From Candidatus Latescibacterota bacterium (GTDB lineage Bacteria > Latescibacterota > UBA2968 > UBA8231): 15,323 nt of DNA. A model generated the notes under the pieces. The model was not told the origin of the DNA and ran no database searches. It worked only from the letters and a program-made list of their open reading frames with translations. Where the stretch lies: positions 1 to 15,323 of the forward strand of contig JAJDYK010000199.1 of assembly GCA_022825185.1 (NCBI GenBank), given 5' to 3'. How positions within the stretch are numbered: the stretch's first letter is position 1; each line of letters starts with the position of its first letter. This document shows, piece after piece, positions 847 through 15,323 of the stretch. The translations under genes and the position numbers were made by a program.

Positions 847-2511
847 TCAACGCCTATTAGACCGACCTCGGGATGTCGGTGAATCCTCTCTTTTTATGGG
901 ATTCAGGGCATGATTCAGTGCAGCAGCTATTCTCTTTGCCCGCTTAGAAACAAACGTCTCGTAGTCGTCGTTAGATATGCCAAACTTGTCTATTGAGCCG
1001 ATGTAGTGACTCCTAAGAGTCTTCGATAAGTCCTGGTTTTCCTTTTGAAAGGACTTCATGTAGATGCTAGGCGCCTTTGCACCGATTACTCGTTTGTTCA
1101 AATGATCATCGACAAGGACGATGTTCACTATCGAGTTTGCTTCCCAGGGTTCATAACCTTCACGCTTTAGATGCGCTCTCGGGAAAAAGTGATGGTAGTT
1201 TTTGCTCGACGAAGCCTTTAGCCAGCTATTGTCTAGCTGCACTTGTCCGTTTGTGCTGAGTCGTTGAGGCTTTTTCTCCGACAGCAGACAAATGATTGCT
1301 CTGCACAGTGCGTTTCCCACGCTGAACCACGTCCATTCCAAGTCCTGTGCCCGGACGCTTAGCTCATAGTTGTCATACTTTGGCTGATTACCCGCTAAAA
1401 TAGCAGCCATCTTACCCAAGTCTGCCTCGATCTTCGTGCCAACTCCTGAGTTAAATCGGTTAGTTAGCGACGCCCAATAGAAATACTGTCGCAGGAGGCG
1501 GTGCTCTTTATTCGAGTAGCTTTTGCCCTTTTTCTTGTAGAAGAACCACGAAAAAGGGACAAGCAAGACATTGTAGGGGAGAATGCGAGAAACAGCTACG
1601 CCAAGGTGTGTACGCAGATAATCTATTGCTGAAAAGACTCCGCTCTTTGTCTCATCCCAAGCCTCAATGAACTCTGCTCGGTTGATGCGAAGGATATCCT
1701 GACGTCGAATTGAGTCACAAACGATTGCAGCGACGCATTGAAGAATCGTATCTGGTGGAATGGTGTCATATCCTGCAGTCTCCAAGCTCTTTTCGCCACC
1801 GTCTGATGACATCAACTGTCTATAGCGCTCAGCGAGGTCAAAGTCATGTTCCTGATCGTATGTTTTTGCAACCATAATCTCGAAGAGACTCAATTCTTCA
1901 CCGCCAGTATTGATTCTGGTAAACACTTCGCACGCGATGTCTATTGGATACTCGTCGATAATCACAACTGAGAAGTCATAGCGTTCCAAATTCTCCTTGT
2001 GTATTGACACGTTGTCTATGTGTTCGCGGTAGTCCTCTACTAGCTCGCTAACCGATGCGTTCAGCAACGTATGAACGGAAATGTAATCGTGTTCCTCGGG
2101 TGGCGTATCAAATACTAGGTCCTCGTCGCTTTCTGGGTCTATTGTCAAATCGATCGAAATATCCTTGTAGTTAATCTCGTGACCCTCTCTCGTTATCCGA
2201 GCTCCTTTACGGATAGCGTATAGAGAAGTGACGCGCTGCTGGCCGTCTAGAACATATTGGATGGGATCTCCCTTATCTGGTTCTTTGAGTTTAATGCCTG
2301 CGACGTCTCGCATATGCCGCAGGCGCTCCTTAGTTTTCCAGAGTATAAACGTTCCTATTGGAAAGCCCTTAAGGATACTGTCGACCAGAGTGGCGGTCTT
2401 AGCTTTTCCCCAGACAAACTCACGCTGGAACTGAGGAATCTTAATGCGGCCCTCGTCAATGTCGTGGAATAAAACAGAGTACTTTTTGCTTTGATTCTCT
2501 GGTTGCTTCAT
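847..2511 (-). CDS. DUF262 family protein with C-terminal HNH-like (DUF1524-type) motif, GmrSD-like
   Basis: A 554-residue protein starting at ATG 2511 and ending at TGA 847-849. The N-terminal DUF262 domain (ParB/Srx-like fold) shows PQFQREFVW at 26-34, the diagnostic DGQQR at 89-93, and FTRINTGGEELS near 197-208, which is the usual second motif of the family. The C-terminal half carries HHFFPRAHL at 440-448 followed by NIVLVDDHLNKRVIGAK at 463-479, the His-Asn pattern of the HNH/DUF1524 nuclease domain. Fused DUF262-DUF1524 proteins include GmrSD, a type IV restriction enzyme that cuts modified phage DNA using NTP. The fused single-chain layout and length fit that group. A line inside the gene is about 47% GC against about 62% in the neighbouring aminopeptidase, a sign of horizontal transfer. 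Restriction activity on modified DNA is inferred from the family. Confidence 0.85.
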   Translation of the reverse strand: MKQPENQSKKYSVLFHDIDEGRIKIPQFQREFVWGKAKTATLVDSILKGFPIGTFILWKTKERLRHMRDVAGIKLKEPDKGDPIQYVLDGQQRVTSLYAIRKGARITREGHEINYKDISIDLTIDPESDEDLVFDTPPEEHDYISVHTLLNASVSELVEDYREHIDNVSIHKENLERYDFSVVIIDEYPIDIACEVFTRINTGGEELSLFEIMVAKTYDQEHDFDLAERYRQLMSSDGGEKSLETAGYDTIPPDTILQCVAAIVCDSIRRQDILRINRAEFIEAWDETKSGVFSAIDYLRTHLGVAVSRILPYNVLLVPFSWFFYKKKGKSYSNKEHRLLRQYFYWASLTNRFNSGVGTKIEADLGKMAAILAGNQPKYDNYELSVRAQDLEWTWFSVGNALCRAIICLLSEKKPQRLSTNGQVQLDNSWLKASSSKNYHHFFPRAHLKREGYEPWEANSIVNIVLVDDHLNKRVIGAKAPSIYMKSFQKENQDLSKTLRSHYIGSIDKFGISNDDYETFVSKRAKRIAAALNHALNPIKREDSPTSRGRSNRR

Positions 2512-3981: not shown

Positions 3982-4053
3982 GTGCAGTGAGGCTACGCGC
4001 TGAGTCAGGCTAGCGCAAGCCACTGCCACTGCTCGCATGCCGACTGAGGACAT

Positions 4054-4068
4054 ATCAAGAGCCTTGAT
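4054..4068. other. Short perfect inverted repeat upstream of the aminopeptidase
   Basis: ATCAAG and CTTGAT flank a three-base centre (AGC), 73 bp before the preferred aminopeptidase start and in the 198-bp gap to the DUF3800 gene. Its size fits a small operator dyad, but 6-bp arms can occur by chance. A nearby weaker 4-bp stem (CTCG/CGAG, 4156-4170) lies just past the DUF3800 stop. I found no clear -35/-10 pair in this gap. Confidence 0.25.
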
Positions 4069-4179
4069 GGCATGCGTTTAAGGTCTACCACGTCGCGGAC
4101 CGCTGAGGGTTGCAAGTGGCTAGGATGGCCCACTTTGAGAGAGACGGCGAGTTGGCTCGTGGTTTTCGAGTACATTTGG

Positions 4180-5256
4180 TCAATTGCGCGGGCCGAAGAG
4201 GACTTTGGCCATTCTGTCAACGCTGTCGGGCCCCGCACGTCGGCGTGGCGGTACCTGGTCTGGGAAAATGCAGTCAGGCCGAATCCCGTTGGAGTCGAGT
4301 GAAGAGAAGCCGGTTTCGAGCACTTGGTTGATGAGTTGGCGATTTTCCGGAGCGAGTTCGGGGTCGAAACGACGTGCGGCGAAGCCAGCACAGATGTCGC
4401 AAAACTGTACCGAGGGAGAATCAAGGGAGTCAACAGCGGACGTGGAGACGACGCGCAGTGGAAGCTGGACGGTGGTCCCGTCGCCCAAAGGGAAGGGCTC
4501 GGCCGGGCCGTGTTGGTCGGTCATACGTTTCCAAATGTCCAGATGGCGGAAGAAGTTGGCAGAGGAGTCGTGGACGATGGCAAAGTCCTCGTCAAAGACC
4601 TTTCGCCAGTGGGTAACGGACGCGAACATGCTCGCAACGTGTAGCTCGTCCGATCCGCGAAACGTGCTGAGGTTGTGGTACTGGTGGAAGAGGTCGGCGC
4701 CCAACGCCATTTGCTCCAAGAACACTTGGACCGGATCTTCGGCTCCGTCCGCGAGCGCCCTAAGGCGGAGTTGGAGAAGTCGGAGGGCGTTCTCAGAGGG
4801 GTTGCGACTGAATGCCTGATAGGCATTGAGTAGACGTTCAAGGGTGTCGGGCGGCGCGAATTGCGTCAGTCCGAAGTGTATGTAGTTGGTGTATTTCCAG
4901 CAGAACCCATCGGCGTAGAAGTCGAAGCCCGCGTCCGTGATGTATGGCTCGATCAGGAAGTCGACGATTTTCGTAAGGACGCAGAATCGCTTGTCGACCA
5001 TGTAAATGAATGTGTTGTAGTCGAGCGAATCGAAATGACGAGCGAAGTCGATGAGGCCTCGCTTGTTGCCGGAGCGCCAGAGGTTGCTGAACTTGAACTC
5101 GCTGCCTCGATACCGAGGGAAGGAGCGTTGCAGGATTTCCCGAGCGGCATCCGCAACGATGTCCGAACTGGCGAGCGCGAAGATGGGTTGCGCGGAATCC
5201 AATAGATTGTGGCCAGTGAATCCGGATTCGTCGAAGTAAAGAGTTCGGGTTGCCAT
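4180..5256 (-). CDS. DUF3800 domain protein (RNase H-like fold, putative nuclease)
   Basis: A 358-residue protein from ATG 5256. The frame extends back to a GTG at 5313, but the added residues (MASYAPRLVAGRPQ) look non-native and the family normally opens with a strand ending in D-E-S. DUF3800 marks are clear: TLYFDESGFTG at 5-15, SEFKFSN at 52-58, YMVDKRF at 85-91, IVHDSSANF at 227-235 and VQFCDICAGFAARR at 283-296. The acidic residues D9, E53, D230 and D287 are likely metal ligands of an RNase H-like active site; this follows from the family fold and is not proven. DUF3800 genes are frequent in mobile and defence regions and their substrate is unknown. This is the last gene of the minus-strand cluster, 169 bp after the ImmA-like gene, so it may have its own promoter; I saw only a weak candidate there. 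No SD precedes the ATG. Confidence 0.85.
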   Translation of the reverse strand: MATRTLYFDESGFTGHNLLDSAQPIFALASSDIVADAAREILQRSFPRYRGSEFKFSNLWRSGNKRGLIDFARHFDSLDYNTFIYMVDKRFCVLTKIVDFLIEPYITDAGFDFYADGFCWKYTNYIHFGLTQFAPPDTLERLLNAYQAFSRNPSENALRLLQLRLRALADGAEDPVQVFLEQMALGADLFHQYHNLSTFRGSDELHVASMFASVTHWRKVFDEDFAIVHDSSANFFRHLDIWKRMTDQHGPAEPFPLGDGTTVQLPLRVVSTSAVDSLDSPSVQFCDICAGFAARRFDPELAPENRQLINQVLETGFSSLDSNGIRPDCIFPDQVPPRRRAGPDSVDRMAKVLFGPRN

Positions 5257-5425
5257 GGCGTTGTGGTGTTGTTGTGGTCTTCCAGCCACAAGGCGGGGCG
5301 CGTAGCTTGCCACAGCGATAGGGAACTGACGATGAGAAATGTTAGGGATTGTTGGAGGTGATTGCTAAGCGCGAATCGGAATTGTAGGCGGAGGTCGAGA
5401 TGAGACCGTAGCAGGCCGATGGCGG

Positions 5426-6751
5426 CTAGGCAGCCTCAACCATTTGCTCGAAGGTCTCGCGGTTGATGACGTTGTGGTTAACGAAGGTGGTTTGGATTAG
5501 GCGTTCGGAAACGTGAAAGTGGCGGGCTGCGGCGTGGATATCATCGTCAGCGGGATCTTCGTTGGGGATGTAGGCTCGAAGGTCGTCAAAGGGGCACAGG
5601 AACTCCTGCGCGAAGGCGCGCTGGAATTTCTGACGGCCGGATTTGGCCGATGAAAGGGGGCCGAGAGCGTCGTTGCCGGACCAGATGATGTCGCCGAGGC
5701 TGCGGCAAAGTTCAAACCGCCGACTGTGCGACCAGCGCGATCTGAGCGCAAGTCTGTTGACGTTGCCGGACGCGTTGCGCAGGCGAAGGCCGTAGGGTAT
5801 CGAGCGTGGTGAGGTGGATTGCGTGGCGAGTCGATTTACGTTGATGTTGAGGACTTCGCTGAGACGTGGGTTCCGGATCGGTCCGGCCGGGACCCGCAGG
5901 AGCCGCCGTAGCTCGCGTGCAGCGCCAACGGCCAGTCTCCACGGAGGGTGGAGTGGGGAGTGGTCGAGTTTAATCTCGGCGATGGTGGGTGGCGTGCGGA
6001 GGGTCACTCTGGAATTCCTAGCGGCGCGGAGGATGTCTTGGAGTGCGCTGGTGGAGTGGTCCCCTTGTTGGGCGAGTGCGGCTTCCTCGATGCCGTCCGT
6101 GCCGAATCGCTTGGTCATGGATTCGTATTCGGATACCAAGGGTTCCGGTGCGGCGTCGGGGTCGAAGCCGAGCAGGGCTTCGAGGCGGCGCCAGCGACTG
6201 ACGGCGGGGTCCGCACGCTCGGCGCACAGATCTCGGTACTCCTCGTCGAGGCTGTCGCAGTCTGAGCCGACGTCCTGTAAGACGCGGCGAATGAACGAGT
6301 CGATCGCGTTCTCTGCAGTCTTGGCAGTAACATACTCAAGCGTGGGTTCGGCGACAAAGCGGACGGAGCGCTGGAGACTGTGCGCGTCCGCGTGGACCAT
6401 GACGGCACACCGGGGTCCTTCGCCCCACAGCGAGATGTTAGGCCAAGGATAGCCGGCTCCGACGGAGGGTAGATGGTGCGCGATACGCCAATGGGCCGGA
6501 AAGTCGCGTTGGGGTGGCGGCGGCTCGCAACGGATGCGCCACCAGTTGTCTAGAAACCAGAACGCGAGTGGAAGCGGAGGCGCTTCAAGGCAGTGGTCAG
6601 GCTGATCGCTGCTGCGGCGAATCAGGCGCGTGAGCCAGACGTCACCGAGGCGGACTGCCAGTCGGCGGGAGGCTGGGTCGCCGTCGGCCGACCGGGGTTC
6701 GACGAGAATCTGGAATCGCTCGGTCACTGGAATTCGTACCGAAGTCGACAT
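5426..6751 (-). CDS. ImmA/IrrE-like protein with degenerate zinc-peptidase site
   Basis: A 441-residue soluble protein from ATG 6751 to TAG 5426. The C-terminal third keeps the ImmA/IrrE (DUF955) framework: RRFELCRSLGDII at 344-356 matches the family's RRFTLAHELGHLL pattern, and QRAFAQEFLCP at 377-387 matches its ANRFAAELLMP pattern. The catalytic HExxH is replaced by RSLGD (350-354) and the third zinc ligand (Glu) is also absent, so metallopeptidase activity is very unlikely. The roughly 250-residue N-terminal region, with a Trp-rich segment (WFLDNWWRIRCEPPPP, 65-80) and GYPWPNISLWGEGP (100-113), is not a domain I can name. Active ImmA proteins cleave repressors; a dead version may instead bind peptides or scaffold. 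It overlaps the upstream small gene by 28 bp, so translation is probably coupled. Confidence 0.75.
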   Translation of the reverse strand: MSTSVRIPVTERFQILVEPRSADGDPASRRLAVRLGDVWLTRLIRRSSDQPDHCLEAPPLPLAFWFLDNWWRIRCEPPPPQRDFPAHWRIAHHLPSVGAGYPWPNISLWGEGPRCAVMVHADAHSLQRSVRFVAEPTLEYVTAKTAENAIDSFIRRVLQDVGSDCDSLDEEYRDLCAERADPAVSRWRRLEALLGFDPDAAPEPLVSEYESMTKRFGTDGIEEAALAQQGDHSTSALQDILRAARNSRVTLRTPPTIAEIKLDHSPLHPPWRLAVGAARELRRLLRVPAGPIRNPRLSEVLNINVNRLATQSTSPRSIPYGLRLRNASGNVNRLALRSRWSHSRRFELCRSLGDIIWSGNDALGPLSSAKSGRQKFQRAFAQEFLCPFDDLRAYIPNEDPADDDIHAAARHFHVSERLIQTTFVNHNVINRETFEQMVEAA

Positions 6752-7335
6752 GCAGTGACGGCGGAGCGGTCGGCGCTAGTGCCGCGGTGATTCGCCCAGT
6801 TCGCGAAGCGGTCGAACACGAGGCGGGCAATGGGTTCCTCGGGGAGGACAGGGTAGCCGTGGAACTCTGTGGTCTCACGGTTCGTTTCACGGGCTTCAAA
6901 GATCCACCCGTCGTCGGCCACGGTCCAGAGCAGACGTGCCGAGTGGCCGATTAGGCCGGCTTGGATTCCTCGTTGGATCAAAGCGGGAATCTCGTCGATT
7001 TGGTCGGGGTTAAAGTCAGCTTCGTCGCACAGGGTGGCGTCGTCCCGTTTGCCATTGAAAGGCTCAAGACCGAACAGATGTGGGTGTCGCTTATGTTTGG
7101 GACTGCCCTCGTAACGGACGTTGTGTAGCAACCGTTGGATGAGGTCATCGGCAGGGTTGGCCATGAGGCGCCGCTTCTCGTTGTGAGAGCCGCGGCGACG
7201 CGAGCGGCGGTGGCTGGGTTTCGGCACGGTTATGGAGTCCTGTGTCTTTGCGTTGTTGCGACTCCAGAGTTTGCTAAAGGCGGGAGTGGTGTGCAAGTAG
7301 GACGCGTCTGGGCGAGAGCGCTGGACTAGTGTCAT
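6724..7335 (-). CDS. Small protein of unknown family
   Basis: The frame runs from ATG 7335 to TGA 6724 (203 residues). Other possible starts are GTG 7227 and ATG 7164 (Met58). The first 57 residues are Arg/Ser-rich (PSHRRSRRRGSHNEKRR) and may be a nucleic-acid-binding tail. By hand count about 75% of third codon positions there are G or C, which argues for coding upstream of Met58, and only the longest form gives operon-like spacing (41 bp) to the preceding ATPase gene. The body looks well folded: HLFGLEPFNGKRDDATLCDE, LLWTVADDGWIFEARETN, and a helical FDRFANWANH segment. No membrane segment, no catalytic signature. Its stop overlaps the next gene by 28 bp. Its place in the cluster suggests it is a subunit or regulator of the same system; the function is unknown. 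Confidence 0.7.
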   Translation of the reverse strand: MTLVQRSRPDASYLHTTPAFSKLWSRNNAKTQDSITVPKPSHRRSRRRGSHNEKRRLMANPADDLIQRLLHNVRYEGSPKHKRHPHLFGLEPFNGKRDDATLCDEADFNPDQIDEIPALIQRGIQAGLIGHSARLLWTVADDGWIFEARETNRETTEFHGYPVLPEEPIARLVFDRFANWANHRGTSADRSAVTACRLRYEFQ

Positions 7336-7376
7336 ATCGTGGATGAATGGTGGTTCGAGAGGGAAGGACGGCGGCG

Positions 7377-8900
7377 TCAGCGGGGTGCAGGTGTGGGTTG
7401 ACGCGGCGTGTCGGGGCGCGCAGGGTCGAAAACACTCGCATTGGACAGTTGGTCGAGAATGGTTTCAATCAGTTCGAGCGCCGTGGCCGGGGACAGCGAC
7501 TGAGCGATGGTGGCGAACGCGGATTGGAGGGACTTGCGGGACTGGGTAGGGATCGCATCGAGCGCGGGGTGCGGAGCGAGGTCGATTGGGTTGAACTCGA
7601 TCGCGCAGACGGTGAGGTCGGGGAGGGGTTCGGTACGGAGGGGCTGTACATGGGCGAGCGTACGCCGGATTTCGGGAAGGCGCTCATGCTCGCGCTCGAT
7701 AAGGGCAGTGGCGTCGGCTGGGCGGAGGTAACCCGAATGGGCAAGTTGGCGTGTACTGTCCAAGCGCTGAATGGCGGCGTCGACGTTCCGCAGCTTGTTC
7801 CGTTGGGAAGAGGCGCGCCGGCATTGGGTGCTGATTTGCTGGGCGATGGCACCGATTTGGTTCTCGAGGTTGCGTAGGTGGGGGCTGGGCTCGAAGTAAT
7901 CCCGCCGACCATTGGGGACGATGCGGCTGTCGAGGACATGAACCTCGCCGACGCACCAGCCATTGAATCGGGGTTCTAGGAAGAGATGCTCAAAGATGCG
8001 ATCTGTGCCGATTTGCATGTTGCCGACTCGGGCGCGAAGACCGCGTACGCCGAGGCCGCGGGGGATCGATCCCGCGTACGGAGTGTGCGCGAGCCATAGC
8101 ACAGCTGCGGGCTGGCCGCCATCAGGGCGGTCAATGACCCGTGTATCGAGATCTTCAAACGGGGCGGCGAATCGATCGTGTATCGCGATTGCCTCAAGAA
8201 ACGGGCGTTTGATGGGGACTTGATCATCGTTGACCTTGATGTCGAATACGAAATGGTCGGTATGGGCGTTGATTAGCTCGCGAATCTCTGTGGAAAAAGG
8301 AAATCGGGCGCACATGGGTACAGGGCAGACTTCGCTGAGGTAGGAGCGGACGATCTCTTGATTGAGAAGTGTCGAGGCCGCGTGACGGCTGATGCGTTCG
8401 ATGGTGACTTGGAAAAAGCGATCTGGCCAATCTCCGCTTGAGAGTTGCGTCGTGGTGGTGCACTTCTGGATGGCGGTTTTCGCGTCGAGGTGTTGGAGGT
8501 CGAGTTTGCGGAGAGCCCGTGCGTCCCACGACACGCGAATTGGAGGGGTGTCTGTGGACGAGCGGGTCGTGAAATGCAACTCATCGGCGAATGCGAGGGC
8601 AGCGAGACGACCGATTCCGCGAAATCCACGGTCCACGGAGGGATTTTTGGGACTGCGACCGAGGTCGATGAGACGGTGGGCGGCCTCGTGTGGGGTCAAT
8701 CCAGGGCCATCGTCAAGTATCGTGATGCGGGAGCGAAGAGGGTCGATGGTGATGCGCACGCTGCCGCCATTCAATCTTTCGGCGGCGACCGCATCGGCGG
8801 AGTTTTGGATGTACTCGCGATAGAGTACCAGTGGATCGTCGTACATGCCGGCTGTGACGAGCCGAAGCAATTCTCCGCCGAGGACCGGTGAGAGGGACAT
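7377..8900 (-). CDS. GHKL (Hsp90/MORC-like) ATPase, second copy
   Basis: A 507-residue protein with an N-terminal Bergerat-fold ATPase: N-box YREYIQNSADA at 27-37 (E29, N33 and D36 for Mg-ATP), G1 LDDGPGL at 62-68, and G2 GFRGIGR at 92-98. A following S5-like transducer ends in GLRARVGNMQIG at 287-298 and GEVHVLDSRIVPNGRRDYFE at 318-337, where an Arg probably reaches the ATP gamma phosphate. A helical C-terminal part (about 340-490) and a Pro-rich tail follow. The same order is seen in the other ATPase of this cluster, so they are paralogs. Members of this superfamily dimerise on ATP binding and act as clamps or chaperones, including MutL/MORC types linked to DNA restriction. The start overlaps the radical SAM stop as TAATG, a sign of translational coupling. 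Confidence 0.85.
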   Translation of the reverse strand: MSLSPVLGGELLRLVTAGMYDDPLVLYREYIQNSADAVAAERLNGGSVRITIDPLRSRITILDDGPGLTPHEAAHRLIDLGRSPKNPSVDRGFRGIGRLAALAFADELHFTTRSSTDTPPIRVSWDARALRKLDLQHLDAKTAIQKCTTTTQLSSGDWPDRFFQVTIERISRHAASTLLNQEIVRSYLSEVCPVPMCARFPFSTEIRELINAHTDHFVFDIKVNDDQVPIKRPFLEAIAIHDRFAAPFEDLDTRVIDRPDGGQPAAVLWLAHTPYAGSIPRGLGVRGLRARVGNMQIGTDRIFEHLFLEPRFNGWCVGEVHVLDSRIVPNGRRDYFEPSPHLRNLENQIGAIAQQISTQCRRASSQRNKLRNVDAAIQRLDSTRQLAHSGYLRPADATALIEREHERLPEIRRTLAHVQPLRTEPLPDLTVCAIEFNPIDLAPHPALDAIPTQSRKSLQSAFATIAQSLSPATALELIETILDQLSNASVFDPARPDTPRQPTPAPR

Positions 8901-10540
8901 TAGACGGTGCCTGCTTGGAGTTGCTTTAGGAGAATGTGATCCGCACGTTGATCGTCAACGGGGTCGTAGAGTCCAGCGTCCTCTACGGTCACATCAGGTT
9001 CGGGAAGTAAGTGATCAGGTGTGAGTTCCGGGAAAACGTGTGCGATGTCGGTGACTCTAGCCGCCTTGGTGTCGATGGCGTGGAAACGGGCGAGCTCGCG
9101 CAGCACAGGAGTGAGGGATTTGTCTGAAACGAGCTTCAGATACGCTTCGCGGCGGGGCTTCGCACGAAGAGTATCGCTGAGTAGAGCGACAAGTTCGAGA
9201 CGTTGGGTAGGATTCAGGCGGCGCAGGAGCGCCTGATACTCGTCAAGGAGTGGTCGCCCGTCGCCATGCTCGAAAAAATCGCGTTCGAAGATGAACGCAT
9301 GCGGAAGAGCGAGTAGGCGCTCGAAATCTTCGAAGCAGTCGCCGAACGCCCTGTGGAAAAACTTATCGCTCCCGGAAACGACTCCATGGGTGGCCTGAAG
9401 CATGATTTGGAACGAGCGCAAGTAGTAGCGGTTCCAGTGTTTGCCGACATGGGAGCGGTCTTTCAGGGTGACGGGCAGGTAGCGCATCGGGAACGACCAG
9501 ATGCGTACGCCGAGACGCGCGTTGAGTTCGATGTTAATGCTCATGCGCTGGTAGAGGTCGCTGGGCGTGTCCATGAAGTTGTAGAGCATGTAGTTGGAGA
9601 GGGACTTCAGGCCGTAACTGGCGGCCATTTCAACGGAACGCTGGTAGACGCGGCGCATGCCGACGTGGTCGAACGCTATGCGTAGCGGGTCGATACAGAT
9701 TTTGGCCATCTCGCGGAGATACATCGGACTCTTGGCGAGAATGCGCGCGTCGACGCCTTGGTTGAAGTCGACGCGCCGTTTGGCGGGCGATGCACCGTCG
9801 CGCTCGAATACTGCTCCACGCTCGAAGCCAAGGTCGCGGATTTCGGCGACGACCTCTTGGTAGCGACTGCTCGCGGCGACGTTGTTGTCCATGAGAATGA
9901 GGTCCTTCTTAGGACCGAACTGCGCCTCGACGCCGAGGACTAGACCGCTTAGGGGCGGCATTTCACGCTGGGCGCCCTCAAGTTTCGGGACGCCGCAGAA
10001 TGAGCACTTGCGTACGCAACCGCGCGAGGCATAGCCGAAATAGGCGTCTCGTACTGGATAGACGTAGGGTGTGTGGTCGAGGATGCTGTAGTCCGGGACG
10101 AGTTCTTCGATGGGTGGGGCGGCGATGTCGTCGGCGCCGAAGTCCCCGTCCTCGCCGGAGAGTTCTAGCGAAACAGCTGGAGGTTGGTCAAGCAAACCCT
10201 TGATGAAGCGAACCCCGGCCCAGCGAGGTTCTCGGATGAACTCGTCGAACATCAATGTGGCGGCTATGCCACCGACAAAGACACGTTCGGCTTGTCCCCG
10301 TGCGGCGCGTAGTGCGAAGTCGATGGCGGCTGAGGTACGCTTCCACTCGAAGCTGAACAGCGTGGTCACATAGACTCGGTCCCAAGCGTGTTCGAGGGCT
10401 TCGGGTGCGTACCCCTTGACGAACTGCACATGGTCGTTGCGGCCGTGTGGGCCATGGTAGGAGGCGATCTTCATTAGGCCTAGCGGCGGGTACTTGTTAG
10501 GGTAACCGGGTTCGACCAGAAGGATGTTCTGCTTAGGCAT
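8900..10540 (-). CDS. Radical SAM protein of the B12-binding-type architecture
   Basis: A 546-residue protein from ATG 10540 to TAA 8900. The cluster-binding CxxxCxxC motif is CVRKCSFC at 175-182 (C175, C179, C182), preceded by YFGYASRG as in class-B-type radical SAM enzymes. The N-terminal domain opens with NILLVEPGYPNKYPPLGLMK, the Rossmann start of cobalamin-binding radical SAM proteins, but no DxHxxG cobalamin motif is visible, so B12 may not bind. The barrel continues with LILMDNN (214-220), VDFNQGVDARIL (257-268) and SNYMLYNFMDTPSDLYQRM (315-333). The substrate is unknown. It lacks the viperin pattern as far as I can see. It lies between two paralogous GHKL ATPase genes, 57 bp after the first and overlapping the second by one base, so it is an integral member of the cluster. 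A role in modifying DNA, nucleotides or a partner protein is inference. Confidence 0.87.
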   Translation of the reverse strand: MPKQNILLVEPGYPNKYPPLGLMKIASYHGPHGRNDHVQFVKGYAPEALEHAWDRVYVTTLFSFEWKRTSAAIDFALRAARGQAERVFVGGIAATLMFDEFIREPRWAGVRFIKGLLDQPPAVSLELSGEDGDFGADDIAAPPIEELVPDYSILDHTPYVYPVRDAYFGYASRGCVRKCSFCGVPKLEGAQREMPPLSGLVLGVEAQFGPKKDLILMDNNVAASSRYQEVVAEIRDLGFERGAVFERDGASPAKRRVDFNQGVDARILAKSPMYLREMAKICIDPLRIAFDHVGMRRVYQRSVEMAASYGLKSLSNYMLYNFMDTPSDLYQRMSINIELNARLGVRIWSFPMRYLPVTLKDRSHVGKHWNRYYLRSFQIMLQATHGVVSGSDKFFHRAFGDCFEDFERLLALPHAFIFERDFFEHGDGRPLLDEYQALLRRLNPTQRLELVALLSDTLRAKPRREAYLKLVSDKSLTPVLRELARFHAIDTKAARVTDIAHVFPELTPDHLLPEPDVTVEDAGLYDPVDDQRADHILLKQLQAGTV

Positions 10541-10562
10541 GGTGGGCTAGGGGGTCCAAATG

Positions 10563-10595
10563 GGGGGCATGTCAAGCTTCTCAGTCGGGGGCATG
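10563..10595. repeat. 9-bp direct repeat between ATPase and radical SAM genes
   Basis: GGGGGCATG occurs at 10563-10571 and again at 10587-10595, 24 bp apart, inside the only 57-bp gap of the central operon. In the transcript these read CATGCCCCC. They fall between the stop of the first ATPase and the start of the radical SAM gene, where no good Shine-Dalgarno site is seen. A role in processing or binding is possible, but the repeat is short. Confidence 0.3.
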
Positions 10596-10597
10596 CT

Positions 10598-12166
10598 TTA
10601 GCGGTGCTGATGGCCGGGCCGGAGCGCGGCGATCACATGCTGTTCAATGGTGGCAAAGCGCTCGTCGTCGTCGAGTTCCTGTTTGACGACGGCGAGAACC
10701 GTGCGGACTGCCAGGCGTGCCTGCTTGTTGAGGTGGGACATGGATGCGTCGGCGTCCGTACGCTGTACCTTTTTGATTTGCTCCTTGAGTTCCTTTACGG
10801 CGCGTAGCGCCCGTTCGAGTTGCTCGCGTTCGCCGTCCGTGCGGTTGCGTTGTTGAATTGTGTCGTTAAGGCGACCGGCTTCCTTGTCGAGCGTCTCGAG
10901 CAAGCGAGTTTTCTCGTTGTGCGATGTGAGCCCCTCTTCGAGCCGCTGGCGGGCTTGCTTGGCTGCACGGTTGGCTCGTTGGGTGATCTTGCGTACGGAG
11001 GTGTTGCGATCCTTGGACTCGTTGCGGATGTCCTTTTCGATGCGTCGCATCTCGTCTGCGAGCTGCTCGTGAAGTCGGGAGAGGGCATCGGAAGGCTCGA
11101 AGTCGTCTCGCTGAGAGTTCGGTACGAGAGCTGGGTCAACGACATGGATCTCGCCGAAGCACCACAAGGCGAGCGGGCGGCTGGTCCAGAGTGCCTGGAC
11201 GAGCGAGTGGTCGCCAATGGCGATGTTGTGCATGCGTACACGGAGGCCGCCGAATGGAACGTCGGCGAGAGCTCCTCGCCGCTGGTGGTGGGCGAGCCAG
11301 CCCCACCAGCCTGAGTATCCACCGTTTCTGGGGAGCGCAACTACATCGGTGACATCGACTCGTCTGGGGGCGCGTCCGAGCGCGTTGCGGGTGGTGAAAG
11401 AATCCTTGAACGGACGGTAGATCTCACGGAGGACGGCACCGTCGGGGCTGCAGATGTTGATCGAGACGGTGTCTAGGGACTCGGGATGGCCGGCGGCGTT
11501 GGCGAAGGTGCGAATCTTCTCCTGAAACTTCCATGTGGTGGGATCTTGGCGGACGGGAGCGGTCTGCTCAAGGTAGTTGGACAAGGCATCGACATCGAGC
11601 AGGGCGGGGTTGGTAACGCCATCGAGGGTGACCTGCAGGAACCCGGCGTCGACTTCGGACGGCCGCTCTTCGGGTGTGCAATTACGGTTGATCGCGTCGG
11701 CAATAGTGGTGGGTGCTTGGCCGGGGCGCGTGAGTTGGTTGATGGCGTGGGCATCAAACGTAACTGTGCAGGCCCGGTCATCACCGTCACTAGTGTCGAA
11801 GACCAGGCGGTTGCAGTAGCTGATACCAGCCATGCGGCCGATTCCACGGAAACCGGCATTGGCGGCGGCCGCATCGTTGGTGCTGGCCTTGCCGGAGTAG
11901 CCGATGTCGACGAGTTGGACGATAGCTTCCTCAGGGTTTAGGCCTGTCCCGTCGTCGCGGATCCGGAGTGTCTTGGCGTGCGGATCGATGATGATGTCGA
12001 TGCATCCCTCATCGGATGCGAGCAAGCCTCGACGGCGAGCTGTACGGACACTGTCAAACGCATTTTGGATGTACTCTCGGATGCAGTGCAGCGGCTCGCT
12101 GTACATGCCGAGTGTAATGGTTTCGAGAAGATGGACGCCGAGCTGGGTTTCATGATTCGGGGACAC
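10598..12166 (-). CDS. GHKL (Hsp90/MORC-like) ATPase with coiled-coil tail, first copy
   Basis: A 522-residue protein starting at GTG 12166 (GGGA lies about 10 bp before it; an out-of-frame ATG at 12153 is not usable) and ending at TAA 10598. Bergerat-fold motifs are in order: N-box REYIQNAFDSV at 30-40, G1 RDDGTGL at 70-76, G2 GFRGIGR at 105-111. The S5-like region carries WGWLAHHQRRG at 288-298, GLRVRMHNIAIG at 307-318 and GEIHVVDPALVPNSQRDDFE at 338-357, closely matching the second ATPase. Residues 365-470 are rich in Lys, Arg, Glu and Gln with heptad-like spacing and probably form a coiled coil, absent or shorter in the paralog. ATP-driven dimer closure is known for the superfamily; a heterodimer with the paralog is inference. 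It follows herA by only 5 bp. Confidence 0.87.
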   Translation of the reverse strand: MSPNHETQLGVHLLETITLGMYSEPLHCIREYIQNAFDSVRTARRRGLLASDEGCIDIIIDPHAKTLRIRDDGTGLNPEEAIVQLVDIGYSGKASTNDAAAANAGFRGIGRMAGISYCNRLVFDTSDGDDRACTVTFDAHAINQLTRPGQAPTTIADAINRNCTPEERPSEVDAGFLQVTLDGVTNPALLDVDALSNYLEQTAPVRQDPTTWKFQEKIRTFANAAGHPESLDTVSINICSPDGAVLREIYRPFKDSFTTRNALGRAPRRVDVTDVVALPRNGGYSGWWGWLAHHQRRGALADVPFGGLRVRMHNIAIGDHSLVQALWTSRPLALWCFGEIHVVDPALVPNSQRDDFEPSDALSRLHEQLADEMRRIEKDIRNESKDRNTSVRKITQRANRAAKQARQRLEEGLTSHNEKTRLLETLDKEAGRLNDTIQQRNRTDGEREQLERALRAVKELKEQIKKVQRTDADASMSHLNKQARLAVRTVLAVVKQELDDDERFATIEQHVIAALRPGHQHR

Positions 12167-12171
12167 GGTGT

Positions 12172-13842
12172 CTATCCCGGGCGGTACGCGTTGCGCGGAA
12201 AGCGGAGCTTCAGCGTTCCCGCGCTGAAACGTGTGTGGCTAACGAGGAGCTCGCCCTTGCGGAGGAAGGGAACCCGTTTAGATTGGGGACGCATTCTTAT
12301 CTCTTGGTCTTTCTGGGACTCGACGGCGGTGGTGCGTCCAAACACGTGCGTGCCCGAGTTGCCGGTAACACGGTCGTCGACGCTCGTGCGGAACTGCTCC
12401 GCACCGAACAGTATGATTCCCTCGGAGCGGCCGCGTTCGCTGATTTCCCGCAGATGTCCGGTAAGGGACCGCGCTCCACCATGCCTCGGAGCGAACTTGT
12501 TCAGTTCGTCGGCGAAGAGGACAACTGTGCCACGCTCCGTGACGGGAGCGCCCTCATTGTCGGGATGGGACGGGCGGGGGTCTCGCAGGGCGGCGATTAC
12601 GTCGCCGACAACGAAGGCCTGGAGGTAGTCAGGGAGTTGAGCGATATCGACAACGGCGACATCGCCGGGTTGGAGTAGGCGAAGGCGGTTGGATAAGCAG
12701 ACCTGTCGGTAGTCGGCAGCGTGCCGAGCCAGTTCGGTGAACATGGCATTACGCGTACGCTGGCCGAAGAGGCGGTAGAAGCGGCGCCAGGACACGACCG
12801 GTATGCGGCTCTTGTCTGGAGTGGAGTTGGCCCAATCCGAGACGTTGCTGCGGAGCGCGCTCCAAGGGGCTTCTCGGCGAACATTTTCGCGGCAATACTC
12901 GACGCAGCTGACTAGTGTCTGTGCCGGGTCGTCCATGTCCTCGAATAGGAGGTGAAGGCGTTCGAGCGCGTGCTCTACATCGTAGAAGTAGCGGTAGGCG
13001 CGTGCGGCATCGAAGTTGGCGGAGACCTCGTTCGAGGGGAGGGACGTTTGGGCCCGGCCGGGTTCATCGGTGCAGTAGGGATAGAAGTATGAGACGTTGG
13101 AGAGCGGCTCGCAGCGGAGGCCGCACCTCTCCCAGTCGCGCCGTGTGCGATCGTCTAGGTCTTGGGCGGGCTCGTGCAGGTGCAGTAGGTCTGAGCCCTT
13201 CACGTTCAGGACGACGAAGGCCGGTTTGGGGCCGGATTCCCACTGGTCGGCCTGCTGCTGGATGGCGGATAGGAGAAACATGGCGTATGAGGTTTTGGTC
13301 GCGAGGCCTGAGATGCCGGAGATGTTGAGGTGGGCACCTTCGGGGCCGACGAGGTAATCGGCGTCCATGTCCACGCTGATCACGATACTGGTGTCGTTGG
13401 GACCGGACATGGTGATGTATCCGGCGGGGGTGTTGCGGTGATATTCGTCAATGCCGAGGGCGCTGCGGACACCGTCTTCGTCGGGATAGTGGACGCGTGA
13501 ACCGTGGGGGACGGGCATTTCGATGTCGTTGGTGTTGTAAAGGACGGTGGCGTCGGCGTATGTGGTTACGACGCGGCCGACGCGGGGGGATTGGGAGGAA
13601 TTGCCGAAGTCGGAGGATATGAACCCGCTCAGCGGGCTCGGCTCGTCTGAGACTTGGTGGATTTCGTCGATGATCGCGTAGAAGCGGCCGATGTCGGCGT
13701 CGGAGTTTTCAGGCGGAAGGACCTGGACGAAGTCGAAGGGCTTGAGATTGACGCCGGCGGTCAACCAAAAACGGAAGGACCCGGTGGACGTCGGGTGGTT
13801 TTCTGTCGCGACGACGCGACCGATTGGTGAGTTGGCGCTCAT
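12172..13842 (-). CDS. HerA-like DNA translocase/ATPase
   Basis: A 556-residue protein from ATG 13842 to TAG 12172. An N-terminal HAS-barrel-like segment (about 5-100, beginning IGRVVATENHPTSTGSFRFW) precedes a FtsK-HerA RecA-type core. The P-loop is GISGLATKT at 176-184: the Lys-Thr pair (K183, T184) is kept but the usual Gly before Lys is Thr. Walker B is VVLFADELNKFAP at 440-452 (D445, E446). Further HerA-like marks are the segment GAEQFRTSVDD (480-490) and a C-terminal tail with KGELLVSHTRFSAGTLKLRF (529-548). HerA proteins form hexamers that pump DNA through a ring and drive a nuclease partner, classically NurA. The NurA-like gene is immediately upstream, 28 bp away, so the pair is expected to form the same kind of complex here. 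Confidence 0.87.
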   Translation of the reverse strand: MSANSPIGRVVATENHPTSTGSFRFWLTAGVNLKPFDFVQVLPPENSDADIGRFYAIIDEIHQVSDEPSPLSGFISSDFGNSSQSPRVGRVVTTYADATVLYNTNDIEMPVPHGSRVHYPDEDGVRSALGIDEYHRNTPAGYITMSGPNDTSIVISVDMDADYLVGPEGAHLNISGISGLATKTSYAMFLLSAIQQQADQWESGPKPAFVVLNVKGSDLLHLHEPAQDLDDRTRRDWERCGLRCEPLSNVSYFYPYCTDEPGRAQTSLPSNEVSANFDAARAYRYFYDVEHALERLHLLFEDMDDPAQTLVSCVEYCRENVRREAPWSALRSNVSDWANSTPDKSRIPVVSWRRFYRLFGQRTRNAMFTELARHAADYRQVCLSNRLRLLQPGDVAVVDIAQLPDYLQAFVVGDVIAALRDPRPSHPDNEGAPVTERGTVVLFADELNKFAPRHGGARSLTGHLREISERGRSEGIILFGAEQFRTSVDDRVTGNSGTHVFGRTTAVESQKDQEIRMRPQSKRVPFLRKGELLVSHTRFSAGTLKLRFPRNAYRPG

Positions 13843-13870
13843 GAGGGCGCTCTAGCTGTGCTGGGGATTG

Positions 13871-14965
13871 TCAGAGGCATGCGCGAATACTCCGGTCGTT
13901 GCGGAACTGAGTCTTGATATAGCGTTCGGTGACGTGGACGGGGTAGAGGTGACTGGCCCAGCGCGCGTCAGTGTTGGGGGTCGCCGGTGCACGAAGTGCG
14001 AGGACGTGTTCGCTGATTCGGCTGCAGCGGGCGGTATCCATCTTGGGAGAGTCGTGAGCGGGGTCGTCGGGGAAAACTTCGATCTTGACCACTCCGTCGG
14101 GGTATTCGAGGCTCGCCACGCGGCCTGGGTCGTGTAACCTTAGGTACCATGACGCGATCGTGAGGTTGCGGTGGGGTGACCCGCGAGCCGGAGTTCGATG
14201 GGCAGAGGGTAGGCGCGAGATGAGTGCGCCGACGCGCTCAGCGCCGCTCCCACTGACATATGGCCGGTGAAGGTCGAACGATTTGGCGACACCGACGACG
14301 TTGCGGAAGGCCTCTTTGTATCGGTCCATGTCGACGTAGAACTCAATGGAACCATCAATGAGGAGTAGCGCATCGCGGGAGATGTCGCCGGCCTTGGCAA
14401 GCTTTACGATGCGTTCCACCTCCATGCTATGCATTTTGTGGAGGACCCGAGCGCGCGCACGGTCCATTGGGGGTCTTTGATCGGTGTCGTCGACTTCGTA
14501 GCGATCGAAAGTGAGGTCGAGCGGGAGGCGGGAGGTCCGTGCGGCGCTGCAGGTAGCCGCTTCGGCGTCGGCAAGATCTTCGGCGGAAAACGAGTCAGGG
14601 AAGAACAAGGTGTTGTTGGCGTCGTAGTGCCTAATGTGCAGGCGTGAGTCCCGCAACTCCGTGGTTGCGACACCGATTTGTGCGATCAGGAGAGGAAGGT
14701 AACGGTTCTTGGTATCGACCACGTAGCCGGCGCTGGTGACGCGTTGGCTGCCGTCGATGAAGTATCGAAAGAGCAACGGGTCGTGGTTGGCAATCTCAGC
14801 AACCTCGAGAAAGCGGGTATCGGGGCGCGGTGTCTCCAGGAACTTGCCCCGGGGCGGACGTGTATCGCTGTCGTTGGGTACTGGGGAGAAGTCGACGTCG
14901 TTAACCCCAGCAGGCCCGTAGCAGGTGAACTTGCCCTCGCGCAGGGCGGCGAGGATGCCGGTCAT
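13871..14965 (-). CDS. NurA-like nuclease
   Basis: A 364-residue protein from ATG 14965 to TGA 13871. NurA domain marks: the first metal-binding motif YFIDGSQRV at 68-76 (D71), a conserved acidic residue in MEVERIVKLA near 181-190, the second DGS in LLLIDGSIEF at 200-209 (D204), the lysine of VGVAKSFDL at 224-232, and the C-terminal YPVHVTERYIKTQF at 341-354. NurA nucleases have an RNase H-like fold, need Mn or Mg, and degrade DNA ends together with HerA. The adjacent herA-like gene supports the call strongly. An extra stretch between about 230 and 330 has low similarity to what I remember of the family. No Shine-Dalgarno site precedes the ATG, which lies 66 bp after a leader-like ORF, so translation might depend on that ORF. 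Confidence 0.8.
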   Translation of the reverse strand: MTGILAALREGKFTCYGPAGVNDVDFSPVPNDSDTRPPRGKFLETPRPDTRFLEVAEIANHDPLLFRYFIDGSQRVTSAGYVVDTKNRYLPLLIAQIGVATTELRDSRLHIRHYDANNTLFFPDSFSAEDLADAEAATCSAARTSRLPLDLTFDRYEVDDTDQRPPMDRARARVLHKMHSMEVERIVKLAKAGDISRDALLLIDGSIEFYVDMDRYKEAFRNVVGVAKSFDLHRPYVSGSGAERVGALISRLPSAHRTPARGSPHRNLTIASWYLRLHDPGRVASLEYPDGVVKIEVFPDDPAHDSPKMDTARCSRISEHVLALRAPATPNTDARWASHLYPVHVTERYIKTQFRNDRSIRACL

Positions 14966-15031
14966 GAAACTGGGAAACTACGCGAAGCCTGTGTGGTGAC
15001 ATGGGCGTTTGGTGGGAAGATGAGGTGGCAG

Positions 15032-15124
15032 TTACGAATTGCCGTCATGGTTGCTACCGGCGTTGGTTGAGGCAGCAGGATCAGCCTTTTGGGCACGCGC
15101 AAGGCGTGTGGTTGATGTGCGCAT
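15032..15124 (-). CDS. 30-residue leader-like ORF heading the cluster
   Basis: ATG at 15122-15124 is preceded by a consensus ribosome site AGGAGGG (complement of 15133-15139) at ideal spacing (8 bases). The ORF runs 30 codons (MRTSTTRLARAQKADPAA..., Ser/Asn-rich end) to TAA at 15032. It is by far the best initiation signal in the cluster, and a plausible promoter ends about 28 bp before it. No rare-codon run, signal peptide or known regulatory-peptide sequence is obvious. It ends 66 bp before the NurA-like start. It could be a true micropeptide, a leader peptide controlling the operon, or a non-functional remnant. Confidence 0.45.
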   Translation of the reverse strand: MRTSTTRLARAQKADPAASTNAGSNHDGNS

Positions 15125-15151
15125 GAAAGCAGCCCTCCTAGGAACGGCCGG

Positions 15152-15180
15152 ATTCTAGATGAGGTGACTGAATTTGGCCA
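15152..15180 (-). promoter_or_regulatory. Putative sigma-70 promoter of the NurA-HerA cluster
   Basis: On the minus strand, TGGCCA (15175-15180, four of six matches to TTGACA) and TAGAAT (15152-15157, five of six matches to TATAAT) are separated by an ideal 17 bp. Initiation is expected near 15145, giving a leader of about 20 bases before the 30-codon ORF. An imperfect palindrome with CTAG at both ends spans 15138-15158, covering the -10 element and start point, and might be an operator. Confidence 0.5.
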
Positions 15181-15182
15181 CT

Positions 15183-15209
15183 GCCGCCCGAGCGGGGCTT
15201 CGAGGCGGC
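15183..15209 (-). other. GC-rich hairpin just upstream of the promoter
   Basis: GCCGCC (15183-15188) pairs with GGCGGC (15204-15209), and an inner CGA/TCG pairing extends the stem, leaving an 8-base loop. It begins 2 bp beyond the -35 element and lies about 49 bp after the stop of the partial gene at the right edge. It may be the 3' end hairpin of that upstream gene. No T-run follows, so it is not a standard terminator. Confidence 0.35.
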
Positions 15210-15257
15210 TCCAACGACTCCGGCTGGAAGGTAGCGCCGTTTCCACGGCGATGCCGG

Positions 15258-15323
15258 CTAGCGCCCCGGCCCGAACACGCCGTCGAGCGTCCCGGCGTCG
15301 AGGACGTTGTCCGCCCAAGTCTC
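15258..15323 (-). CDS. C-terminal codons of an unrecognised gene (5' end outside window)
   Basis: The minus strand is open from the window edge to TAG at 15258, giving 21 residues ending WADNVLDAGTLDGVFGPGR. The composition reads like an ordinary protein end, and the stop is followed by a hairpin and then the promoter of the cluster, as expected at a gene boundary. Too short to name a family, and an open frame of this length can occur by chance in GC-rich DNA. Confidence 0.4.
   Translation of the reverse strand, partial: ETWADNVLDAGTLDGVFGPGR

What the first reader, a model, noticed from the sequence alone, without database searches (positions are those of the whole stretch)
4180..15124. Candidate undescribed system: NurA + HerA + two GHKL ATPases + radical SAM + dead ImmA + DUF3800
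Seven co-directional protein genes from NurA-like to ImmA-like are spaced 5-57 bp apart or overlap, with DUF3800 following after 169 bp. Two members (NurA, HerA) are a known DNA-processing pair, but I do not know a named defence or repair system joining them to paired Hsp90/MORC-like ATPases, a radical SAM enzyme and an inactive ImmA-like protein. Proximity to a GmrSD-like DUF262 gene supports a defence-island setting. The functional assignment is inference.
Basis: partly seen in the sequence, partly recalled or inferred. Interest (0 to 1): 0.88.

Follow-up and report, generated by a model that had tools for sequence, protein, structure and literature searches.

The report
Radical-SAM restriction-like defence gene cluster
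A bacterial gene cluster joins a DNA-shredding motor to a radical-chemistry enzyme paired with Hsp90-like ATPases; its relatives suggest a restriction system that may mark its own DNA in a way not seen before, but this is untested.

The parts
13871..14965 (-). NurA-like nuclease (364 aa), first gene of the operon
   Evidence: Pfam NurA 15 bits, E 0.018, below cut-off; profile to 7f6d NurA E 0.015; D204/G205 invariant and D71/G72 nearly invariant in 10 aligned relatives
12172..13842 (-). HerA-like translocase ATPase (556 aa)
   Evidence: profile to 7f6d HerA E 1.9e-52; most of the Walker A region 173-186 and DELNK 445-449 invariant in 11 relatives
10598..12166 (-). GHKL-A ATPase (522 aa, GTG start), Hsp90-like
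   Evidence: HATPase_c_3 37 bits; E31, N35, D71, G73, G75, G105-G110 conserved in at least 90% of 28
8900..10540 (-). Radical SAM enzyme (546 aa): N-terminal cobalamin-type Rossmann domain plus rSAM barrel, one CxxxCxxC cluster (C175, C179, C182)
7377..8900 (-). GHKL-B ATPase (507 aa), usual downstream partner of the radical SAM gene
   Evidence: HATPase_c_3 41.2 bits; directly downstream of rSAM in 78 of 80 loci; model like Hsp90/TRAP1 N+M domains and MORC4
6724..7335 (-). p6, small unknown protein (146 aa from the conserved ATG at 7164); optional
   Evidence: no family hit; paired with the ImmA-like gene in L024 too
5426..6751 (-). Inactive ImmA-like protein (441 aa); optional accessory
   Evidence: no HExxH in the window or in the L024 relative; 3 of 15 genomes tested
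4180..5313 (-). DUF3800 protein (358 aa from the ATG at 5256); optional neighbour
   Evidence: PF12686 26.6 bits, cut-off 21
847..2511 (-). DUF262/GmrSD-like gene, flank, not part of the unit
   Evidence: PF03235 E 4e-30; PADLOC PDC-M55C E 1.2e-56; outside the block shared with L008

Best explanation
A restriction-modification-like defence system with two exchangeable halves. SHOWN by comparison: a near-constant pair (radical SAM enzyme plus Hsp90-like GHKL ATPase) combines with one of several alternative DNA-attacking modules; in the window that is NurA-HerA, with a second GHKL. INFERRED: the radical SAM-GHKL pair takes the place of the DNA methyltransferase. The GHKL dimers close around DNA on ATP binding and present a site; the radical SAM enzyme, with a cobalamin-type domain, writes a chemical mark there (most likely a methyl or methylthio group on a carbon that ordinary methyltransferases cannot reach). 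The HerA motor and NurA nuclease translocate along and destroy DNA that lacks the mark. p6/ImmA-like and DUF3800 are optional regulators or passengers.
Against: No modification, defence phenotype or target is shown. On the HerA chassis the MTase/rSAM exchange is one event (HerA tree), so those counts are not independent. The pair is not absolute: Marinitoga camini virus 1 has NurA-HerA plus a short rSAM but no GHKL in 53 kb, two virus records (L095, L097) have a longer rSAM and no GHKL, and L202 has rSAM with Pbe genes but no GHKL. One rSAM locus (L058) does have a IIG-like MTase within the fetched stretch, and one DISARM-like locus (L082) an ORF with a motif-IV-like string 5 kb away. That DISARM normally carries methylases is recalled; for Pbe/CxC systems it was seen in passages of PMC10853773, which also say only some of them have methylases. 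Cobalamin binding is not shown. Radical SAM enzymes are oxygen-sensitive (recalled), yet many carriers are aerobes (recalled).
Confidence: 0.52

Rival explanations
1. The radical SAM-GHKL pair is a sensor or trigger, not a self-marker: it senses phage DNA or replication stress and, by a radical reaction on a nucleotide, peptide or partner protein, switches on whichever nuclease module is next to it.
For: The pair joins very different nuclease modules; a GHKL domain is proposed to control the nuclease of another defence protein (VcSduA, passages of PMC12137116); a radical SAM enzyme that modifies a peptide effector was proposed for other conflict systems (passage of PMC7159879).
Against: MTases occupy the matching place in sister HerA-NurA loci; a lone pair without a nuclease module on a prophage-like contig.
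Confidence: 0.25
2. DNA repair or end-resection cassette: HerA-NurA resects, GHKL acts like MutL, the radical SAM enzyme repairs damaged bases (as spore photoproduct lyase does).
Against: Patchy distribution: rSAM in 5 of 398 Pseudomonadota genomes, two of the five only partial or short, and in 19 of 398 of the Clostridia phylum, most of them short. Plasmid and phage carriage; exchange with DISARM and Pbe parts and with MTases.
Confidence: 0.12
3. All eight genes, including the dead ImmA-like protein and DUF3800, form one obligate system.
For: Tight spacing; the block NurA to DUF3800 is shared with L008 (L010 is the same contig).
Against: p6 and ImmA-like were not seen in the stretches fetched around the other 14 NurA-HerA-rSAM loci, though several of these end soon after the operon (L017, L087, L204, L207). 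The ImmA-like gene occurs in 3 of 15 genomes, once (G127:C3) on another contig than the system.
Confidence: 0.08
4. Coincidental packing of unrelated defence-island genes.
For: Neighbouring DUF262 gene.
Against: Same gene set in 15 NurA-HerA loci and 78 of 80 rSAM-GHKL pairs.
Confidence: 0.03

Closest known systems
HerA-NurA complexes (PDB 7f6d)
   Same: HerA profile E 1.9e-52 and NurA E 0.015 to 7f6d; same gene pair
   Different: Here in one operon with GHKL ATPases and a radical SAM enzyme
HerA-NurA plus type IIG/N4-N6 methyltransferase loci (L225-L232, this study)
   Same: Same HerA family, sister clade
   Different: MTases in place of GHKL-rSAM; no GHKL and no rSAM found in the fetched stretch
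DISARM
   Same: In Clostridia loci L076-L078 and L080-L083 DrmA and DrmB sit in one operon with the rSAM-GHKL pair
   Different: The window has no DrmA or DrmB; in those operons no MTase was seen in the genes scanned
Pbe / CxC-DndE phosphorothioate-linked systems and Dnd
   Same: L200-L202 carry PbeA, PbeC/DndD-like and dnd_assoc_4-like genes beside rSAM (L201 scanned; L200 and L202 by profile)
   Different: The window lacks them; the passages of PMC10853773 that I saw do not mention such a radical SAM pair
Dpd (7-deazaguanine) system
   Same: DpdB/DndB-like DGQHR protein next to rSAM in many loci; the SNF2 helicase resembles DpdE and ZorD
   Different: No PADLOC hit to Dpd proteins in the window
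Cobalamin-type radical SAM enzymes (MgmA, AprD4, CysS, TsrM, OxsB; MiaB/RimO)
   Different: 11-15% identity in those alignments; no NCBIfam cut-off reached; substrate unknown
Hsp90/HtpG, MORC, MutL GHKL ATPases
   Same: N-terminal ATPase and middle domain, Foldseek E 4.9e-15 to GRP94, 4.6e-13 to MORC4; GHKL motifs
   Different: Far below the HtpG cut-off (29.4 and 17.2 of 371 bits); C-terminal part is helical

Membership tests
HerA | HerA-type P-loop ATPase with Walker A and B and homology to solved HerA | tested here: met
   Walker A region mostly invariant and DELNK invariant in 11 relatives; 7f6d E 1.9e-52
NurA | NurA fold/profile match | tested here: inconclusive
   Pfam 15 bits, below cut-off 21; 7f6d_H E 0.015
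NurA | conserved acidic residues and pairing with HerA | tested here: met
   D204 invariant, D71 nearly so, L030 being short at its start; HerA next to it in the 15 loci
Radical SAM superfamily | CxxxCxxC and radical SAM barrel | tested here: met
   3 Cys in 74 of 74; fold; Pfam 20.2 bits, below cut-off 29.5
Cobalamin-dependent radical SAM methylase | N-terminal cobalamin-type Rossmann domain | tested here: met
   Alignment from residue 1-5 onward to MgmA, OxsB, TsrM; N-terminal part to AerR and photocobilins
Cobalamin-dependent radical SAM methylase | cobalamin bound and methyl transferred | not testable with these tools
   Needs purified protein
GHKL ATPase | N-box E/N, DxGxG and G-rich ATP lid | tested here: met
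   GHKL-B E29, N33, D63, G65, G67, G92, G95, G97; GHKL-A E31, N35, D71, G73, G75, G105, G108, G110
Hsp90/HtpG | HtpG equivalog cut-off | tested here: not met
   29.4 and 17.2 of 371 bits
ImmA/IrrE metalloprotease | HExxH zinc motif | tested here: not met
   RRFELCRSLGDIIW in the window and RRFELCRTLGDAIW in L024; no ImmA Pfam hit
DISARM | DrmA and DrmB | tested here: not met
   No such PADLOC match among the ten window genes scanned
Dnd/Pbe | DndD/PbeC ABC ATPase with DndE and sulfur genes | tested here: not met
   The only PbeC hits are 9.4 and 6.2 bits to the GHKL-A coiled coil
Dpd | DpdA TGT, DpdB | tested here: not met
   No DpdA or DpdB hit among the ten window genes scanned
Restriction-modification (works like) | DNA-modifying enzyme protecting host from the paired nuclease | not testable with these tools
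   Only positional replacement of MTases shown
GmrSD/DUF262 (flank gene) | GmrSD_N domain | tested here: met
   105.8 bits, cut-off 33.2

The most novel reading that the evidence does not exclude
The radical SAM-GHKL pair is a new class of DNA-modification writer: a cobalamin-type radical SAM enzyme loaded on DNA by an Hsp90/MORC-like clamp places a carbon-centred mark on genomic DNA. This one writer serves as the self-label for at least four different restriction chassis (HerA-NurA, DISARM DrmAB, Pbe/DndD and the SNF2-ParB/DGQHR type), and phages carry it alone to protect themselves.
Probability: 0.42. Interest if true: 0.96.

Novelty: new variant of a known kind. Interest (0 to 1): 0.86.

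Why it matters
If right, bacteria write a self-mark on DNA by radical chemistry, which methylome calling tuned to m6A, m4C and m5C may miss, and one writer has been wired into several restriction machines. It gives a concrete candidate for the possibility raised in PMC10853773 (passage) that some DndDE-type systems lacking the sulfur genes mediate entirely different modifications. It also makes the question testable: plasmid pNL1 of cultured Novosphingobium aromaticivorans carries a PIN-GHKL-DGQHR-rSAM-GHKL locus. Hsp90-like ATPases as regular partners of a radical SAM enzyme would be a surprise on their own.

Tried and rejected
Considered and dropped: a chance cluster (refuted by recurrence); obligate ImmA-like and DUF3800; membership in DISARM, Dnd, Pbe or Dpd. 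ImmA-like and DUF3800 against the PDB gave nothing useful. HerA in viral contigs as a single sequence gave no relative. rSAM in E. coli genomes by megablast: no match. No p-value is given for the MTase/rSAM exclusion because the HerA tree shows one exchange. I did not identify which contig numbers hold L011, L012, L017 and L023, so for them the absence of an MTase rests on the locus scan. That scan found one ORF with an SPPY string among 15 NurA-HerA loci (L087, 505 aa), which PADLOC places with pAgo/Aga-like proteins. Among the other rSAM loci, L058 has one IIG-like MTase match, and ORFs with a motif-IV-like string occur in L013, L019, L020, L054, L082, L090, L092 and L096, of which those in L019 and L020 at 540 aa are the rSAM genes themselves. 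The rSAM tree has long branches (L203, L095, L202, L204) whose places are unsure.

Rows dropped before counts: L001, L002, L008, L009 (copies), where L010 (copy of the window contig) stayed in beside the window. L010 and other copies were dropped; four rows under 380 aa (L007, L070, L075, L096) before the tree; L232 (HerA only 314 aa) before the HerA tree. One search used score cut-offs that I chose. Scans of MTase profiles and of p6/ImmA-like profiles saw only the fetched stretches.

Literature: ten searches found no paper describing this set in their listings. Only open-licence PMC papers were searched. Papers seen as passages only: PMC10853773, PMC10250203, PMC12137116, PMC7159879, PMC4158269, PMC2292703, PMC7641849, PMC13331322; PMC12839542 by a term search that returned no passage. 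PMC12977600: search listing and start of abstract only.
Full report
WHAT IS THERE. The window holds eight co-directional minus-strand genes from 14965 to 4180, followed by an M17 aminopeptidase (4053-2623) and a DUF262/GmrSD-like gene (2511-847) (gaps). Pfam confirms the two GHKL ATPases, DUF3800 and the DUF262 gene above cut-off. NurA and Radical_SAM are below cut-off, and HerA and p6 have no hit. PADLOC and NCBIfam name none of the core genes. A profile of 11 HerA relatives finds the HerA of the solved HerA-NurA complex 7f6d at E 1.9e-52; the NurA profile finds its NurA at E 0.015. A contig of the nearest held genome (G001:C6, L008, the same record as L010) is 99.84% identical over window 4019-15323 and stops abruptly at 4019, so the NurA-to-DUF3800 block sits in two different left-hand contexts or at an assembly joint.

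THE NEAR-CONSTANT PAIR. I fetched 74 loci of named genomes by the radical SAM protein and added plasmid records. After dropping copies, 80 loci were clustered (the window and its near-copy L010 both counted). A GHKL gene lies directly downstream of the radical SAM gene in 78 of 80; the two misses are a distant plasmid protein (L007) and a broken radical SAM gene (L070). In a wider set of 100 loci, 94 have a GHKL (misses L007, L070, L095, L096, L097, L202). In the six NurA-HerA loci from the Clostridia phylum and from virus records (L087, L098, L099, L203-L205) there is one GHKL and it lies directly upstream. Hosts span Pseudomonadota, Acidobacteriota, Gemmatimonadota, Chloroflexota, Nitrospirota, Verrucomicrobiota, Bacillota and others (titles, groups). 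In 11 genomes searched whole, the best GHKL-B match is the one at the fetched locus, and in six of them (G458, G462-G466) the next match lies within 15 kb of it.

THE EXCHANGEABLE PART. Beside the pair lies one of several modules: NurA-HerA with a GHKL (window type), a SNF2 helicase with a 149-aa protein and two paralogous ParB-like proteins, a DpdB/DndB-like DGQHR protein with or without PIN plus GHKL, DrmA plus DrmB plus a NERD helicase with a second GHKL in Clostridia, or PbeA plus PbeC/DndD plus a dnd_assoc_4-like gene. Among 100 loci, NurA-HerA (15), ParB-SNF2 (49), Drm (7) and Pbe (3) never overlap. The other 26 have none of these four: 13 have DGQHR and/or PIN, and 13 have no recognised module, six of them with the rSAM gene within 1.4 kb of the start of the stretch held. 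On the radical SAM tree (96 rows) the NurA-HerA label needs 8 changes, at least 6 of them forced by well-supported branches; the window's gene groups with two NurA-HerA types and one ParB-SNF2 type. The four-gene order NurA-HerA-GHKL-rSAM recurs at 38-44% radical SAM identity in L087, L098 and L099 and in L203-L205, from a sample of 398 genomes of the phylum of an uncultured Clostridia. Marinitoga camini virus 1 carries NurA, HerA and a short radical SAM gene of the same families at 27-30% identity, but no GHKL in the whole record.

THE METHYLTRANSFERASE CONTRAST. I asked the reverse question with HerA. In 398 Pseudomonadota genomes, 3 have this HerA, all 3 with NurA-GHKL-rSAM. In 398 genomes of the Clostridia phylum, 11 have it. 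Three (G467, G555, G721) have GHKL-rSAM. The other eight show no GHKL or radical SAM gene in the 14-20 kb fetched but carry a roughly 1090-aa type IIG/Eco57I methyltransferase and, in six of the eight, a roughly 310-430-aa N4/N6 methyltransferase (in L232 the large gene is in pieces). Profiles built from these methyltransferases match none of the 15 NurA-HerA-rSAM loci. Genome searches with PF02384, PF01555 and PF00145 place no hit on the system contig in G001, G127, G223, G467, G721, G462, G465, G484 or G639:C6; in G555, G787 and G466 the nearest hits are about 242, 124 and 26 kb away. The HerA tree puts the rSAM type (15) and the MTase type (7) in two sister groups, so this is one exchange and the counts are not independent tests. 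In the DISARM-like and Pbe-like loci no methyltransferase was seen among the operon genes scanned with Pfam; not every gene of every locus was scanned. Against the pattern, L058 has a IIG-like methyltransferase in its stretch.

MOBILITY. Loci lie on plasmids, beside a recombinase-like gene (L099, judged by eye) and in virus records. One prophage-like contig (L088; integrase and tail genes judged by eye from the sequences) carries the rSAM-GHKL-B pair alone, with none of my nuclease-module or MTase profiles matching in its 28.9 kb (MTase profiles). The contig end lies 2.2 kb upstream of the pair, so a missing part cannot be excluded.

HOW IT MOST LIKELY WORKS. Shown: a near-constant pair, exchangeable DNA-attacking modules, and methyltransferases in the matching place of sister loci. 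Inferred: the pair writes a protective mark on DNA, GHKL acting as the ATP-gated clamp and the radical SAM enzyme as the writer, while HerA-NurA destroys unmarked DNA. The main rival is a sensor or trigger role. I found no report of a DNA mark or of phage protection for it in the ten searches named under Tried and rejected.

ACCESSORIES. p6 and the dead ImmA-like protein also sit together, inverted, beside a ParB-SNF2 type system in L024, and equal contig lengths hint at three more linked cases. They were not seen beside the other NurA-HerA loci, some of which are cut soon after the operon. A DUF3800 gene also follows the methyltransferase in the HerA locus L226, but it is at best distantly similar to the window's (E 0.094).

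Noticed in passing
L225-L232 (e.g. L227 5505-12998): NurA-HerA with a type IIG/Eco57I methyltransferase and usually an N4/N6 methyltransferase: an apparently separate HerA-NurA restriction-modification type, 8 of 398 genomes of the Clostridia phylum.
   Followed up: partly
L209 3856-19595; L210: Clostridia operon GHKL-UvrD-like helicase-unknown-DrmA-DrmB-NERD helicase-rSAM-GHKL: a DISARM-like operon with a radical SAM pair.
   Followed up: partly
L004 6941-10880 and other ParB-SNF2 loci: Module of ParB-like, 149-aa unknown, SNF2 helicase and second ParB-like paralogue; no family scanned names it as a unit.
   Followed up: partly
L085 8809-9726, L086 8524-9555 and many viral loci: Short (about 300 aa) relatives of the radical SAM protein occur without GHKL in many phage records; in L085 one lies near Dam-like methylase and PAPS-reductase-like genes.
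   Followed up: no
G127:C4 about 23294-25509: A short radical SAM relative lies just downstream of a C5-methyltransferase match.
   Followed up: no
window 4019: Abrupt end of 99.84% identity to L008 inside the start of the M17 aminopeptidase gene: island edge or assembly joint.
   Followed up: partly
window 847-2511: DUF262/GmrSD-like gene, strong match to PADLOC candidate PDC-M55C.
   Followed up: no
L087 6797-8314: A 505-aa protein with matches to pAgo/Aga-associated models follows the NurA-HerA-GHKL-rSAM operon.
   Followed up: no
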